A DNA stretch of 64,000 nt. Origin: a virus. Under the pieces are notes generated by a model. The model searched no databases. It saw nothing but the letters and a program-made list of their open reading frames with translations, and had not been told where the DNA came from. Positions 5,275 to 49,714 of the stretch are shown one piece after another. Location: IMG/VR virus record IMGVR_UViG_3300024999_000049, positions 1 to 64,000 of that record. The stretch is one strand, 5' to 3'. Both the position numbers and the translations under genes were made by a program. Every line of letters begins with the position of its first letter. The stretch's first letter is position 1.

Positions 5275-5562
5275 CTATTTGGTTTTTCGCCTTGGTATTT
5301 TTAATTCATAATCTGTAAATAGATATTTTTTAATATCTGTAACTCTAGTTACAGCAACAAATTCACAAACGGTTTCAGAAATATATAACAGTTCTTCTTC
5401 TGATATTGGATATTTAGATATTAAATCATTAAACATTTTACCTGTATCTAAATTCCATTGTTTTCTGAAGTCAGTCTCATCTAAAGTTTTTATAGCAATT
5501 TCTAATTGTTTTAACAATAATTGAATTTGAAGATCTAAAAACTCTTTAATTTTTTTAAACAT
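5275..5562 (-). CDS. Hypothetical protein, copy A of a duplicated pair
   Basis: 95 residues, beginning MFKKIKEFLDLQIQLLLKQL and ending in a basic tail PRRKTK. It is a close paralogue of the gene at 11613-11900; the two agree along their whole length and in the leader TTTTTTAAACATATTACCTCC read on the plus strand. The N-terminus is a leucine-rich amphipathic helix. No family recognised. Confidence 0.8.
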   Translation of the reverse strand: MFKKIKEFLDLQIQLLLKQLEIAIKTLDETDFRKQWNLDTGKMFNDLISKYPISEEELLYISETVCEFVAVTRVTDIKKYLFTDYELKIPRRKTK

Positions 5563-11598: not shown

Positions 11599-11616
11599 AT
11601 AAAATCTGTATTTTAT
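11599..11616 (-). repeat. ATAAAA-N6-TTTTAT junction element
   Basis: Exact copy; inner bases TCTGTA. The stop codon of the gene at 11613-11900 lies inside the first arm. Confidence 0.75.
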
Positions 11617-11900
11617 TTATTTAATCGCCTTGGTAATTTCAAATCATAATCTGTAAACAGATATTTTTTAATATTTGTAATCCTAGTTACAGCGACAAAA
11701 TCACAAACAGTTTCAGAAATAGACAGCAATTCATCTTCTGATATCGGATATTTAGATATTAAGTCATTAAACTTTCTTCCTGTTTCTAGATTCCATTGTT
11801 TCCTAGCATCAATATCGTTTGAGATTTTTATAGCAATTTCTAATTGCTTCAATAGCAGTTGTATTTGTAGATCTAAAAACTCTTTAATTTTTTTAAACAT
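11613..11900 (-). CDS. Hypothetical protein, copy B of a duplicated pair
   Basis: 95 residues, paralogue of the gene at 5275-5562: identical for the first 25 residues and at FNDLISKYPISE and KKYLFTDY. The tails differ (PRRLNK against PRRKTK). The copies are about 6 kb apart in the same orientation. Function unknown. Confidence 0.8.
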   Translation of the reverse strand: MFKKIKEFLDLQIQLLLKQLEIAIKISNDIDARKQWNLETGRKFNDLISKYPISEDELLSISETVCDFVAVTRITNIKKYLFTDYDLKLPRRLNK

Positions 11901-11910
11901 ATTACCTCCA

Positions 11911-11928
11911 TAAAATCATCATTTTATA
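11911..11928 (-). repeat. ATAAAA-N6-TTTTAT junction element
   Basis: Exact copy; inner bases TCATCA. It lies between the tRNA-like gene and the ribosome site of copy B. Confidence 0.75.
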
Positions 11929-11934
11929 AATTAT

Positions 11935-12046
11935 GCGGAAGGTGGGATTCAAACCCACGAAGCATAATGCATGAGATTTGCAAATGGTTCACAGTGTATA
12001 CATGCTCCATTTATCCCATTCCTTTAATCACTCGGAAACTTCCGCA
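11935..12046 (-). tRNA. tRNA-like RNA 1 (class II, Tyr-like) with 30-nt insertion in the anticodon loop
   Basis: Acceptor GCGGAAG/CTTCCGC, T8-T9, a D arm TCC-GAGTGATTAAA-GGA much like tRNA-Tyr, a short variable arm GCA-TTA-TGC with TTC linker as in tRNA-Tyr, and a T arm GTGGG-TTTGAAT-CCCAC. The anticodon stem TGGGA/TCTCA encloses 37 nt instead of 7. The extra bases form a second stem AAATGG/CCATTT. The last seven bases, TTGCAAA, would be a legal loop (anticodon GCA). No CCA is encoded; C56 of the T loop is replaced by T. Either an odd tRNA with a small insertion or a tRNA-shaped RNA with another role. Confidence 0.6.
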
Positions 12047-12401: not shown

Positions 12402-12546
12402 CTTGTAGGTAGAGATTTGCACTCTACATGGTGGGCTATTTTTATTAACCGGATGTCCCATGCTTGATGTAGCTCATATGCATTACTGCTCACTACAAAC
12501 ACCTTGAAAACGGCTTACTATCGTCTACCTATTCCGACACTACAAG
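12402..12546 (-). tRNA. tRNA-like RNA 2 (Leu-like D arm) with large internal extension
   Basis: Acceptor CTTGTAG/CTACAAG (extendable to nine pairs), T8-G9 and D arm TCG-GAATAGGTAGA-CGA, the pattern of tRNA-Leu, then a T arm GTAGAG-TGCAAAT-CTCTAC. Between them lie about 90 nt where a tRNA-Leu has about 35, and no normal 7-nt anticodon loop can be drawn after the predicted 5' stem AGTAA. Possible internal helices are TGTAG/CTACA and CATGG/CCATG. T55 is G. Intergenic, between a coiled-coil gene and a small Cys protein. Confidence 0.5.
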
Positions 12547-12566
12547 TAAATAAAATTTAATTTTTA

Positions 12567-13329: not shown

Positions 13330-14858
13330 TTAGTCGCATTTACTAAATCCACAATCAGGACACACTGAACATCCACCGGATCTTTGCATTCTTTCATGTT
13401 TACATTCAGTATGTTTTATTTCGTCAATTTCCTTTTTTGTAGCTATCTGATATTCAATCGGTTCATATTCGACTTCTTCTAATTCTTTAAGAATATTTTT
13501 TAAAACATTGGCTATTGCTGAAGCACAAGATTTACCGACACTTACTGGTTTGCCAATTAATTCACTAATTTCTTGTTGTAATTCTTTAGATATGTGTTTA
13601 CTTACTAAACTCTTAACCTTTAACATGCCAACTTGTTTGCCACGTAGAGCTTGATAGCTTGCACATGTACCCGATTTTTCGAGCTGAGTAATTAAATACT
13701 CAATTGGTATTCCACCTCGCATACCTGCTGACAAGAGCCTACTATTAGCCTGTGTGTTAACCATACAGCCACCAACGCCATCAGTATTGGTGAAGCAATC
13801 ATAAATTTTACCTTCAGATTCATCTACACCTACGAAGAAATATAGATTACCACAGCCAGACCTAAGTTTATATTTACGATATGTTAATCCTTCAGGAACA
13901 TCTTCAATAAATCCTCTTGGTATTTCAGATATAACTTCTTCTTTTATTTCTTTAGTATTGGTAAGAATACCATTTCTAGCACAATTATCTCTATATATTG
14001 TTACTCCCTTTAAACCCATTTCCCATGCTAATATATATAAACTTTCAACTTCATCAACTGTAAAATTATTTGGGACATTTACCGTAGAACTAATCGAAGC
14101 ATCTATATGTTTTTGCCAGATGGATTGCATTTCAATACGTTCTTTATAATTTAAAGTCATTGCAGTATTGAAATAATCTGGCAAATCACTTTCATTAACT
14201 ATATTTTTAATTTTCATATATTGTTCAACGATTGGAGTATAAACTTTATATGATTGATCTTTACCATGCAATGATTCAGTCTTGCGAGTATATGATATGT
14301 TATACATTGGCTCAAGGGCCGTACTTACGCCAAGCATAGTTCCTATTGAACCAGTTGGTGGTATGGTAAGAAGTTGGCTATTCGCAAGTCCAAATTGCAT
14401 TACAAGAGATTTTGTTATTGCATTTGTATTTTGTAGAAAAAATTTACTATTAAATATAGCATCTTGATTATATTTTGGATATCTGCCATATTTTTTAGTT
14501 AACTCCGCTGAATAAGCTATGGCAGTATTTATCATATTAAATCCAATATCATCTGCCAAATCTAATGAATGTTTACTTCCATATCTAATACCTAATTTTA
14601 TAAGAGCATCATGCCAACCAAAAGTACCTAATCCAATTTGCCTCCAATCATTGACACTATCTCTTTGTTCTTTGAGAGGATGTAATGTCAAACCTTCATG
14701 TAAGACTTCATTTAGTGCAATAACACCTTGTCTTACAGCTTCGTTAAAATCAGCATAATCGAATGTTGCTTTATCTGTAAATGGACTAACAATAAATTCA
14801 GATAAATTTATACTGCCTAATAAACAACTACCTCCTGCTGGAAGAGGTTCTTCTGCAC
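13330..14858 (-). CDS. nrdJ: Class II ribonucleotide reductase, exon 2
   Basis: Second exon, joined to the exon ending at 15029 after removal of the group I intron; the codon TGT (Cys) is split as T plus GT. It continues AEEPLPAGGSCLLGSINL, the NPCAE active-site context of the large subunit, then GTFGWHDALIKLG, the nucleotide-binding barrel, LKGVTIYRDN (NrdJ-type), a C-terminal extension and a terminal zinc/redox motif CSVCPDCGFSKCD. The spliced product is about 770 residues, normal for adenosylcobalamin-dependent NrdJ. Reduces ribonucleotides to deoxyribonucleotides without oxygen. Confidence 0.9.
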
Positions 14859-15028
14859 CTTGCCTCAATTAGTATCAAACACAATTCTAATCGTGGTCTG
14901 GACTATCGCATACATATTTCTATGTCCTTCTCACTTAGTCTCTCACGCTGGCATTACCCTTGCGCCCTGTCGATGTATGTTCATCTTCCAAGTCAATCAG
15001 AGAAGGTTTTAAATCCGCATACAAGTTT
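14859..15028 (-). ncRNA. Group I self-splicing intron in nrdJ
   Basis: 170 nt between the two nrdJ exons. P1 is plain: exon end AATCCGT pairs with the internal guide GCGGATT, giving the required U-G at the 5' splice site; the intron ends in G. P3 pairs CCTTCTC with GAGAAGG, P7 pairs GACTA with TAGTC, and P8 is ACAT-AGAAAT-ATGT. No ORF inside, and unusually short for the class. It interrupts the codons just at the catalytic NPC motif, a classic highly conserved insertion point. Confidence 0.88.
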
Positions 15029-15812
15029 ACGGATTAACTCCTGCATATTTAAAATCTTTATCTTCGCTAAGTAAATTCCAGCTTGTTATATGATCCCAAT
15101 TAAGTATTCCTGGCTCCGCATAATTCCAATTCATTTCAGCTAATTTTCTAAATAAAGCTTTTGCATTAACAATCTTTTTAATTGATTCTCCAGTTTCTTT
15201 TCTGGTGAATATTAATTCCCAATCATTATTGTTAATTACAGCATTCATAAAATTATCATTAATACGAATTGAAATATTGGCCTTTGTAACCTTATCTAAA
15301 TCTGATTTAATCTCAATAAACTCTTCTAAATCAGGGTGAGTACAATCAATTGAAATCATTAAAGCTCCCCTGCGTCCTGCCTGACCGATCAACTCAGTGG
15401 TGAGACTATAGAGATCCATAAATGATACTGAGCCAGAAGTTTCCTTGGCAGCATTATTTATCTTAGCATTACGTGGAGCGAGATTGGAAATATCAATTCC
15501 ACAACCTCCACCATATGAATATGTCCGTGCTAATTTTTTAGCACAATCAAAAATACTTTCAATATTGTCTTCTGGAGGCTCAATTACATAGCAATTACTA
15601 AAAGTAATTTTTCTACCTAGATTCTGTAATCCCCTACTTGCAAGTATTCTTCCTCCGAAGAGAAATTTCTTATCTATGATCAATTGCTTAATAGCTTCGT
15701 TTCCACCAGACACTCTATCAAACCATTCGTCAAGAGTTTCATTATCAAAACGGTATTTTTTATTTAATATATCTTGCGACAACTGAAGTGGCAACCATTC
15801 CTGTAACTCCAT
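15029..15812 (-). CDS. nrdJ: Class II ribonucleotide reductase, exon 1
   Basis: First exon, about 261 residues from MELQEWLPLQLSQ. It holds the N-terminal redox Cys in ITFSNCYVIEPPEDN, the loop YSYGGGCGIDISNLAP, RRGALMISIDCTHPDLEEF and ends KYAGVNP, directly before the active-site Cys encoded across the splice junction. Read unspliced, translation stops at the TAA that begins the intron, so splicing is needed for activity. Upstream is a small gene read from the promoter region at 16162. Confidence 0.9.
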
Positions 15813-49203: not shown

Positions 49204-49431
49204 CTATTTACTAATCCACATTCCTATTGGAAGTAAACTATCACTTTCAGAATATTTATATTTAACCTTATAGCCTAATTCTTGTACTTTTGCTTCTACA
49301 TGATCAGAATAAAGCATGAATGCAATATCTCCATCTTCTACTATTAACTTTATATCTGTCAAACAGGATGCCTTTTCTCCATGATCTCCACCATGACACA
49401 TTTTACAATTAACAACTACTATTTCAGGCAT
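49204..49431 (-). CDS. Small Cys-His protein
   Basis: 75 residues from MPEIVVVNCKMCHGGDHGEK; start at 49431 with AAGGAG 7 nt upstream. KCHG-type metal site near the N-terminus, then a beta part. No family recognised. Confidence 0.6.
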   Translation of the reverse strand: MPEIVVVNCKMCHGGDHGEKASCLTDIKLIVEDGDIAFMLYSDHVEAKVQELGYKVKYKYSESDSLLPIGMWISK

Positions 49432-49444
49432 TTTAACTCTCCTT

Positions 49445-49714
49445 CTATTTACTTTTATTAACATAATATAAAAACACTTCTTCAATTTCTTTAATATTAT
49501 CTTCTACATACCCTTCTCCATTTGATATAAATGCTAAAGCCTCGGTTGATGGTTCAGAAGAATATTTATTGTCACCAGTTGCATCCAAAACAGAAATATC
49601 AATATCATATTCTTCAAACATATTTGTTAATTCACGCTCTAACATTTTCGCTTTTTCTATTGTCGCTTGTATTTGTCTTAATTTATTTTTAATCTTAACT
49701 GGCATTTGTTTCAT
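49445..49714 (-). CDS. Hypothetical protein
   Basis: 89 residues; coiled-coil start MKQMPVKIKNKLRQIQATIE then acidic end. No family recognised. Confidence 0.6.
   Translation of the reverse strand: MKQMPVKIKNKLRQIQATIEKAKMLERELTNMFEEYDIDISVLDATGDNKYSSEPSTEALAFISNGEGYVEDNIKEIEEVFLYYVNKSK

What the first reader, a model, noticed from the sequence alone, without database searches (positions are those of the whole stretch)
11972..12020. tRNA-like RNA 1 could carry a 30-nt insertion spliceable to a GCA anticodon
Removing 30 nt from the loop leaves TTGCAAA (U33, anticodon GCA, purine 37) in a class II body with Tyr-like D and variable arms. A GCA (Cys) reading in a long-variable-arm tRNA would itself be odd. 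Bacterial tRNA introns known so far are much larger self-splicing introns, so a 30-nt case would be new.
Basis: inference. Interest (0 to 1): 0.6.

Follow-up and report, generated by a model that had tools for sequence, protein, structure and literature searches.

The report
Phage tRNA look-alike with blocked anticodon
A bacterial virus carries an RNA gene descended from a transfer RNA whose decoding loop is filled by a conserved 30-base hairpin; it is more likely a non-decoding tRNA mimic than a tRNA with a removable intron, and similar mimics with the same rare 'elbow' base swap turn up in unrelated viruses but not in a search of cellular genomes.

Summary
On the minus strand, 12045-11934, lies a full class II cloverleaf, far above chance, with a 37-nt anticodon loop; deleting 30 nt leaves UUGCAAA. 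The body resembles class II tRNA-Cys(GCA) genes, which proved common in phages, so a GCA anticodon here is not odd. Splicing is not supported. (1) A homologue in an otherwise nearly unrelated phage (L142, 90% identical over its core) keeps the 30 nt, with the hairpin preserved and compensatory changes in acceptor and apical stem. (2) Both copies have A73, whereas all five class II phage tRNA-Cys seen have U73. (3) Both replace the G19-C56 elbow pair by A19-U56; 83 of 83 ordinary tRNAs examined have GG/C56. (4) With Leu-like A19/U56 words, viral contigs gave ten tRNA-like genes (about four families), all with long non-canonical middles, and none of normal length; 85,000 cellular genomes gave none. 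(5) No intron endonuclease, RtcB or RNA ligase was found in the phage record. Best reading: a stable, CCA-ended, non-decoding tRNA mimic that uses a tRNA body as scaffold, similar in kind to T4 species 1 RNA. Function is inferred; expression is untested.

The parts
11934..12045 (-). t1, class II tRNA-like RNA gene, 112 nt including discriminator A73; no CCA encoded (L142 encodes CCA)
   Evidence: fold and scan; homologue L142 2578-2688
12039..12045 (-). acceptor stem, 5' strand (GCGGAAG)
   Evidence: pairs with 11935-11941; two pairs compensatorily changed and one A-U to G-U in L142
11935..11941 (-). acceptor stem, 3' strand (CUUCCGC)
12020..12036 (-). D arm UCC-GAGUGAUUAAA-GGA, with G18-A19 in place of G18-G19
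   Evidence: sequence
12014..12018 (-). anticodon stem, 5' strand (UGGGA)
11983..12012 (-). 30-nt insertion between nt 32 and 33 (placement ambiguous by 1): AAAUGG-AGCAUGUAUACACUGUGAA-CCAUU; with U33 it forms a 6-bp extension AAAUGG/CCAUUU
   Evidence: absent from phage class II tRNA-Cys; kept in L142
11995..12002 (-). 8-nt self-complementary UGUAUACA in the apical loop (UGUGCACA in L142)
   Evidence: p about 0.025 per loop; weak
11977..11982 (-). residual 3' part of the anticodon loop, U33-GCA-A37-A38; GCAA is drawn as a bulge in the full-length fold
   Evidence: sequence; matches class II tRNA-Cys UUGCAAA
11972..11976 (-). anticodon stem, 3' strand (UCUCA)
11959..11971 (-). variable arm UGCAUUAUGCUUC (class II)
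   Evidence: resembles the EcS1 tRNA-Cys variable arm
11942..11958 (-). T arm GUGGG-UUUGAAU-CCCAC, with U56 in place of C56 (A19-U56 elbow)
12405..12549 (-). t2, second and more degenerate tRNA-like element in the same gene block: acceptor CUUGUAG/CUACAAG, Leu-like D arm UCG-GAAUAGGUAGA-CGA, T arm GUAGAG-UGCAAAU-CUCUAC, long non-canonical middle
   Evidence: sequence and fold; no homologue found; tentative

Best explanation
t1 is a phage-encoded, non-decoding tRNA mimic derived from a phage class II tRNA-Cys(GCA). Shown: a tRNA acceptor, D, variable and T architecture with the elbow pair kept as A19-U56; an anticodon loop interrupted by a 30-nt insert that, in both known copies, pairs into a conserved extension of the anticodon arm; Cys identity base U73 replaced by A. 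Inferred: it is co-transcribed with the flanking minus-strand genes (it starts 12 nt after one ORF and ends about 30 nt before the next), cut out by the host tRNA-processing enzymes, given CCA (genome-encoded in L142), and accumulates as a stable full-length RNA that does not decode. Most likely it uses the tRNA body as a nuclease-resistant scaffold and as a handle for tRNA-binding host factors, while the extended arm carries the specific function (partner binding, or homodimerisation through the palindromic loop). Which host factor it engages is unknown; competition with, or decoying of, tRNA-handling or tRNA-targeting enzymes is the likeliest candidate.
For: Homologue L142, in a 34.8-kb contig sharing only two weak protein matches with this phage apart from the RNA itself, keeps the insert, with 100% of modelled pairs, three double-sided compensations (acceptor 2:110 and 4:108, apical 42:54) and one G-U in the extended stem; it is 90% identical over query positions 6-106 and encodes CCA. 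A19-U56 is absent from 83 of 83 canonical tRNAs in the fetched loci. With Leu-like A19/U56 words the long-middle search of viral contigs returned ten loci, all tRNA-like, the normal-length search one non-tRNA, and 85k cellular genomes 18 non-tRNAs. A related phage, G012, found without using that signature (by the Rfam tRNA model), has A19-U56 and a loop without U33. L169 has A19-U56 with the anticodon arm reduced to a GUA-GAAA-UAC hairpin. A73 in t1 and L142 against U73 in five phage class II tRNA-Cys.
Against: Only two true homologues are known, so covariation is thin: 59 of 500 shuffles reach the observed values. The exact UUGCAAA loop is retained, which a non-decoding RNA would not need. 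No expression data. The A19/U56 searches were signature-biased and used Leu-like words apart from the t1-type searches, which found only L142. The palindrome evidence is weak and post hoc.
Confidence: 0.6

Rival explanations
1. Intron-bearing tRNA: the 30-nt hairpin is removed from the anticodon loop between nt 32 and 33, giving a functional class II tRNA with anticodon GCA.
For: Precise restoration of UUGCAAA, P = 6e-4 for a random loop; body and loop match phage class II tRNA-Cys; the insert length is exactly 30 nt in both homologues; the anticodon letters are conserved. A Leu-like relative, L135, can be trimmed to AUUAGGG (UAG, Leu) in one stem register (sequence; not significant alone).
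Against: A73 is not a Cys discriminator; the A19-U56 elbow was never seen in a decoding tRNA here; the insert is conserved as structure; no symmetrical bulge-helix-bulge; 30 nt is far too short for a group I or II ribozyme; no PF01974, RtcB, PF09511 or PF09414 in the record (PF09511 had no positive control).
Confidence: 0.13
2. Decaying pseudogene: a tRNA-Cys gene disrupted by a chance insertion.
For: Lost U73; loop interrupted; no ordinary tRNA nearby.
Against: Structure intact with compensatory acceptor changes in a homologue in an almost unrelated phage; elbow changed on both sides together; such elements recur in other phages.
Confidence: 0.1
3. Anti-defence supply or decoy: the RNA is charged or bound like a tRNA but lacks the anticodon loop that host anticodon nucleases cut, so it titrates or resists a tRNA-targeting defence.
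For: Phage tRNAs are known to counter tRNA-targeting systems: retron-Eco7 and PrrC (PMC11555353), anticodon-loop changes (PMC10264068). This is a specific case of the best explanation.
Against: In PMC11555353, changing stem-loops or the anticodon of the protective tRNA-Tyr abolished rescue, so a mimic without an anticodon would not replace lost tRNA. No defence target is known for this host.
Confidence: 0.12

Closest known systems
Phage class II tRNA-Cys(GCA) (EcS1, Enterobacter phage myPSH1140, CcrColossus, Brevundimonas phage Domovoi, Pseudomonas phage D6)
   Same: Class II body, D-arm word CCGAGTG-T-AAAGG, UUGCAAA loop, variable arm; likely ancestor.
   Different: They have an uninterrupted 7-nt loop, G19-C56 and U73; t1 has a 30-nt insert, A19-U56 and A73.
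T4 rnaC and rnaD (species 1 and 2 RNAs)
   Same: Annotated as small stable phage RNAs inside the tRNA cluster; rnaC folds with a tRNA-type T arm, a variable-arm-like hairpin and a long hairpin where the anticodon arm would be.
   Different: T4 is not among the BLAST hits listed; rnaC keeps C56; t1 keeps a complete D arm and 7-bp acceptor stem.
tmRNA tRNA-like domain
   Same: tRNA acceptor and T arm without a decoding anticodon; weak covariance match, 13.8 bits.
   Different: Far below the gathering score (47); full D arm; no reading frame; 112 nt only.
Archaeal-type bulge-helix-bulge tRNA introns
   Same: Short insertion in an anticodon loop.
   Different: No BHB motif: one 4-nt bulge plus a 2/4 internal loop around a 6-bp helix; no endonuclease in the record.

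Membership tests
Decoding tRNA-Cys (class II, phage type) | cloverleaf with 7-bp acceptor and class II variable arm | tested here: met
Decoding tRNA-Cys (class II, phage type) | 7-nt anticodon loop with U33-GCA | tested here: not met
   37-nt loop as encoded; met only if 30 nt are removed
Decoding tRNA-Cys (class II, phage type) | discriminator U73 | tested here: not met
   A73 in t1 and L142; U73 in all five phage class II tRNA-Cys
Decoding tRNA-Cys (class II, phage type) | G19-C56 elbow | tested here: not met
   A19-U56; 83 of 83 canonical tRNAs have GG/C56
Group I intron in a tRNA | ribozyme core of roughly 200 nt or more | tested here: not met
   insert is 30 nt; no Rfam intron match there
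Bulge-helix-bulge tRNA intron | two 3-nt bulges on opposite strands around 4 bp | tested here: not met
   folds of t1 and L142
Bulge-helix-bulge tRNA intron | tRNA-splicing endonuclease and ligase available | tested here: inconclusive
   none found in the phage record; host unknown; PF09511 search had no positive control
T4 species 1-type phage stable RNA | tRNA-like acceptor/T arm with a non-decoding hairpin in place of the anticodon arm | tested here: met
T4 species 1-type phage stable RNA | sequence homology to rnaC/rnaD | tested here: not met
   T4 not among the BLAST hits listed at E up to 10
T4 species 1-type phage stable RNA | accumulates as a stable RNA | not testable with these tools
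   no RNA data
tmRNA | covariance match and tag reading frame | tested here: not met
   13.8 bits against 47; ARAGORN found no tmRNA

The most novel reading that the evidence does not exclude
The A19-U56 elbow swap marks a phage-only class of non-decoding tRNA mimics, arisen several times from Leu-like and Cys-like bodies, whose anticodon arms are replaced by family-specific hairpins (extended, GNRA mini-hairpin or palindrome-capped) and which engage the host tRNA machinery without decoding.
Probability: 0.45. Interest if true: 0.75.

Novelty: new variant of a known kind. Interest (0 to 1): 0.55.

Why it matters
Phages of T4 type have long been annotated with stable tRNA-cluster RNAs of unknown function. 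A sequence signature (A19-U56 with a non-canonical middle) that separates such mimics from real tRNAs would make the class searchable, explain genes that tRNA finders miss, and give a natural counterpart of the engineered tRNA scaffold. It also makes the intron question directly testable by one Northern blot.

Tried and rejected
ARAGORN in intron mode and Rfam gathering (miss it). tmRNA reading (13.8 bits). Exact T-arm search of viral contigs (none). Records of phages related by neighbouring proteins: no t1 homologue. BLAST of t1, t2, L030 and L142 against 50,697 phages: only short tRNA fragments. The genome-contig hits were all non-tRNA. The t1-type word search beyond L142 gave chance matches, although one contig (L169) holds its own tRNA-like genes. 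The shared hexamer AGCAUG in t1, t2 and L030 is not shared by L142 (AGGAUG) and was dropped. A TruB-avoidance idea was dropped because TruB accepts Y56 (PMC7912444). Palindromic loop as dimer site: p about 0.025 for t1, 0.05 for L169b, kept only as a lead. Literature searches found no report of A19-U56 tRNAs or of phage tRNA-like RNAs lacking an anticodon, but most subscription journals are not held.

Full report
WHAT IS THERE. The window is part of a 120,193-base IMG/VR virus record. Its terminase and portal proteins resemble those of large phages of Bacillota such as Clostridioides phage LIBA6276, Brevibacillus phage Sundance, Lactococcus phage 949 and Alicyclobacillus phage KKP_3916. On the minus strand at 12045-11934, in a gap between two small ORFs (12381-12058 and 11900-11613), lies the tRNA-like sequence t1. 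Its minimum-energy fold is the complete cloverleaf: 7-bp acceptor, 3-bp D stem with an 11-nt loop, anticodon stem, variable arm, T arm. A cloverleaf scanner that requires acceptor, D and T arms ranked it first among 1.7 Mb of phage sequence with score 27; random sequence of equal size and dinucleotide content reached 20 at most. ARAGORN and Rfam do not report it, because the middle is abnormal.

THE 30 NUCLEOTIDES. The anticodon stem UGGGA/UCUCA encloses 37 nt. Thirty of these (AAAUGG...CCAUU, 12012-11983) lie between U32 and U33 of what would be UUGCAAA. The flank-joined sequence matches, over 67 of 68 nt at 77% and E = 1e-3, a class II tRNA-Cys(GCA) of Escherichia phage EcS1. Class II tRNA-Cys genes proved common in phages: Enterobacter, Cronobacter and Erwinia T4-like phages, CcrColossus, Brevundimonas phages, Pseudomonas phage D6. 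With the anticodon loop left out of the comparison, three such tRNA-Cys score 31, 24 and 22 against t1, the best other class II tRNAs 22 or less. That set is small, partly chosen by homology to EcS1, and a BLAST with the loop masked no longer finds EcS1. I take descent from a class II tRNA-Cys as likely, not proven.

WHY NOT AN INTRON. A pattern of the t1 D and T loops found one homologue in all viral contigs, L142 in IMGVR_UViG_3300025000_000277. Beyond this RNA that 34.8-kb contig shares two weak protein matches with the window's genome, and its G+C is 42% against 30% for the window. L142 encodes the 3' CCA. The two RNAs are identical in D arm, anticodon stem and T arm and 90% identical over the core. 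The acceptor stems differ with two double compensations and one G-U; the inserted stem AAAUGG/CCAUUU becomes AAGUGG/CCAUUU; an apical C-G becomes G-C; all modelled pairs are kept in both. With two sequences this is suggestive only (59 of 500 shuffles do as well). The insert is thus maintained as a hairpin in two nearly unrelated phages. Both RNAs have A73, while all five phage class II tRNA-Cys read here have U73, so the spliced product would lack a main Cys identity base (established knowledge of tRNA identity). No tRNA-intron endonuclease (PF01974), RtcB (PF01139) or RNA ligase (PF09511, PF09414) was found in the record; PF09511 rang in no control genome, so that negative is weak, and the host is unknown. 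The fold has no bulge-helix-bulge motif, and 30 nt cannot hold a known ribozyme.

THE ELBOW SIGNATURE. In t1 and L142 the tertiary pair G19-C56, which stacks at the tRNA elbow (PMC7912444), is A19-U56. Among ARAGORN-canonical tRNAs in the fetched loci, 83 of 83 that my scanner could parse have GG and C56. The related phage record G012, found through a neighbouring protein and the Rfam tRNA model rather than by this signature, has a 110-nt Leu-like element with A19-U56 and a loop AGCAUGA lacking U33. A scan of viral contigs for Leu-like A19 and U56 words with a long middle returned ten loci, all tRNA-like with non-canonical anticodon regions (about four families after merging near-identical copies: G012; L132/L141; L135/L138; L133/L134/L136/L139/L140) in contigs of 29-61% G+C. 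The same words with a normal-length middle returned one hit that is not a tRNA, and with a long middle in 85k cellular genomes 18 hits that are not tRNAs. By luck one contig (L169) held a 66-nt element with A19-U56 whose anticodon arm is a 3-bp GAAA hairpin. So in this sample the swap goes with loss of decoding and with phages. The words were Leu-like and exact, which limits the claim.

HOW IT MOST LIKELY WORKS. Shown: architecture, insert retention in two phages, elbow swap, loss of U73, genome-encoded CCA in the homologue. Inferred: co-transcription, processing by host tRNA enzymes, stability and absence of decoding. I think the tRNA body serves as a scaffold and as a handle for tRNA-binding factors, and the long arm carries the specific part. 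In both homologues the apical loop holds an 8-nt palindrome whose two central bases changed from AU to GC while staying self-complementary; an unrelated element in L169 also caps an arm with one (UUACGUAA). Shuffle p values are 0.025, 0.026 and 0.05, not independent and chosen after the fact, so homodimerisation is only a lead. Competition with a tRNA-handling or tRNA-targeting enzyme fits the known use of phage tRNAs against defence systems (PMC11555353, PMC10264068) but has no direct support here.

COMPARISON. The nearest known kind is the pair of small stable RNAs of T4, rnaC and rnaD. rnaC folds with a tRNA T arm and a long hairpin instead of an anticodon arm; t1 works like it but is not a sequence relative. 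Alicyclobacillus phage KKP_3916 has an unannotated tRNA-like element of about 130 nt in its tRNA cluster. The result is a new variant of a known kind.

Noticed in passing
window 15028-14859 (-), between ORFs 15027-15812 and 13330-14868: The ribonucleotide reductase large-subunit gene is interrupted at its NP|C motif by about 170 nt; inferred junctions are T|AAACTTG and GGCAAG|GTGCAG, with group-I-like P7 words AGACTA...TAGTC. Rfam gives no intron match.
   Followed up: partly
window 5275-5562 and 11613-11900 (-): Two 95-aa ORFs are near-duplicates at DNA level; the second directly follows t1, the first has no tRNA-like neighbour.
   Followed up: partly
L129 about 833-962 (Alicyclobacillus phage KKP_3916 about 11832-11961): Unannotated tRNA-like RNA with an 11-bp acceptor helix, canonical T arm and two hairpins sharing loop UAGCU, inside the tRNA cluster.
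   Followed up: partly
L133, L134, L136, L139, L140: A conserved family of A19-U56 RNAs with a long acceptor helix, GUC-GAAA-GGC mini-hairpin in the anticodon position and a bulged T stem, in at least one phage of high G+C.
   Followed up: partly
L030 2673-2813 (-), G012 about 49,327-49,467: Skipping-rope RNA (RF02924, 57 bits) just upstream of the two tRNA-like elements of the related phage.
   Followed up: no
L169 8015-7884 and 7810-7721 (-): Two further non-canonical tRNA-like genes (132 and 90 nt) with normal G19-C56 in the same contig as the 66-nt mini element.
   Followed up: partly
L167 1669-1502 (-): A 168-nt Leu-like element with an extended anticodon arm and an internal second T-arm-like hairpin.
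   Followed up: no
L065 826-752 (-): 75-nt tRNA-like gene with an aberrant T loop and a D loop without GG.
   Followed up: no
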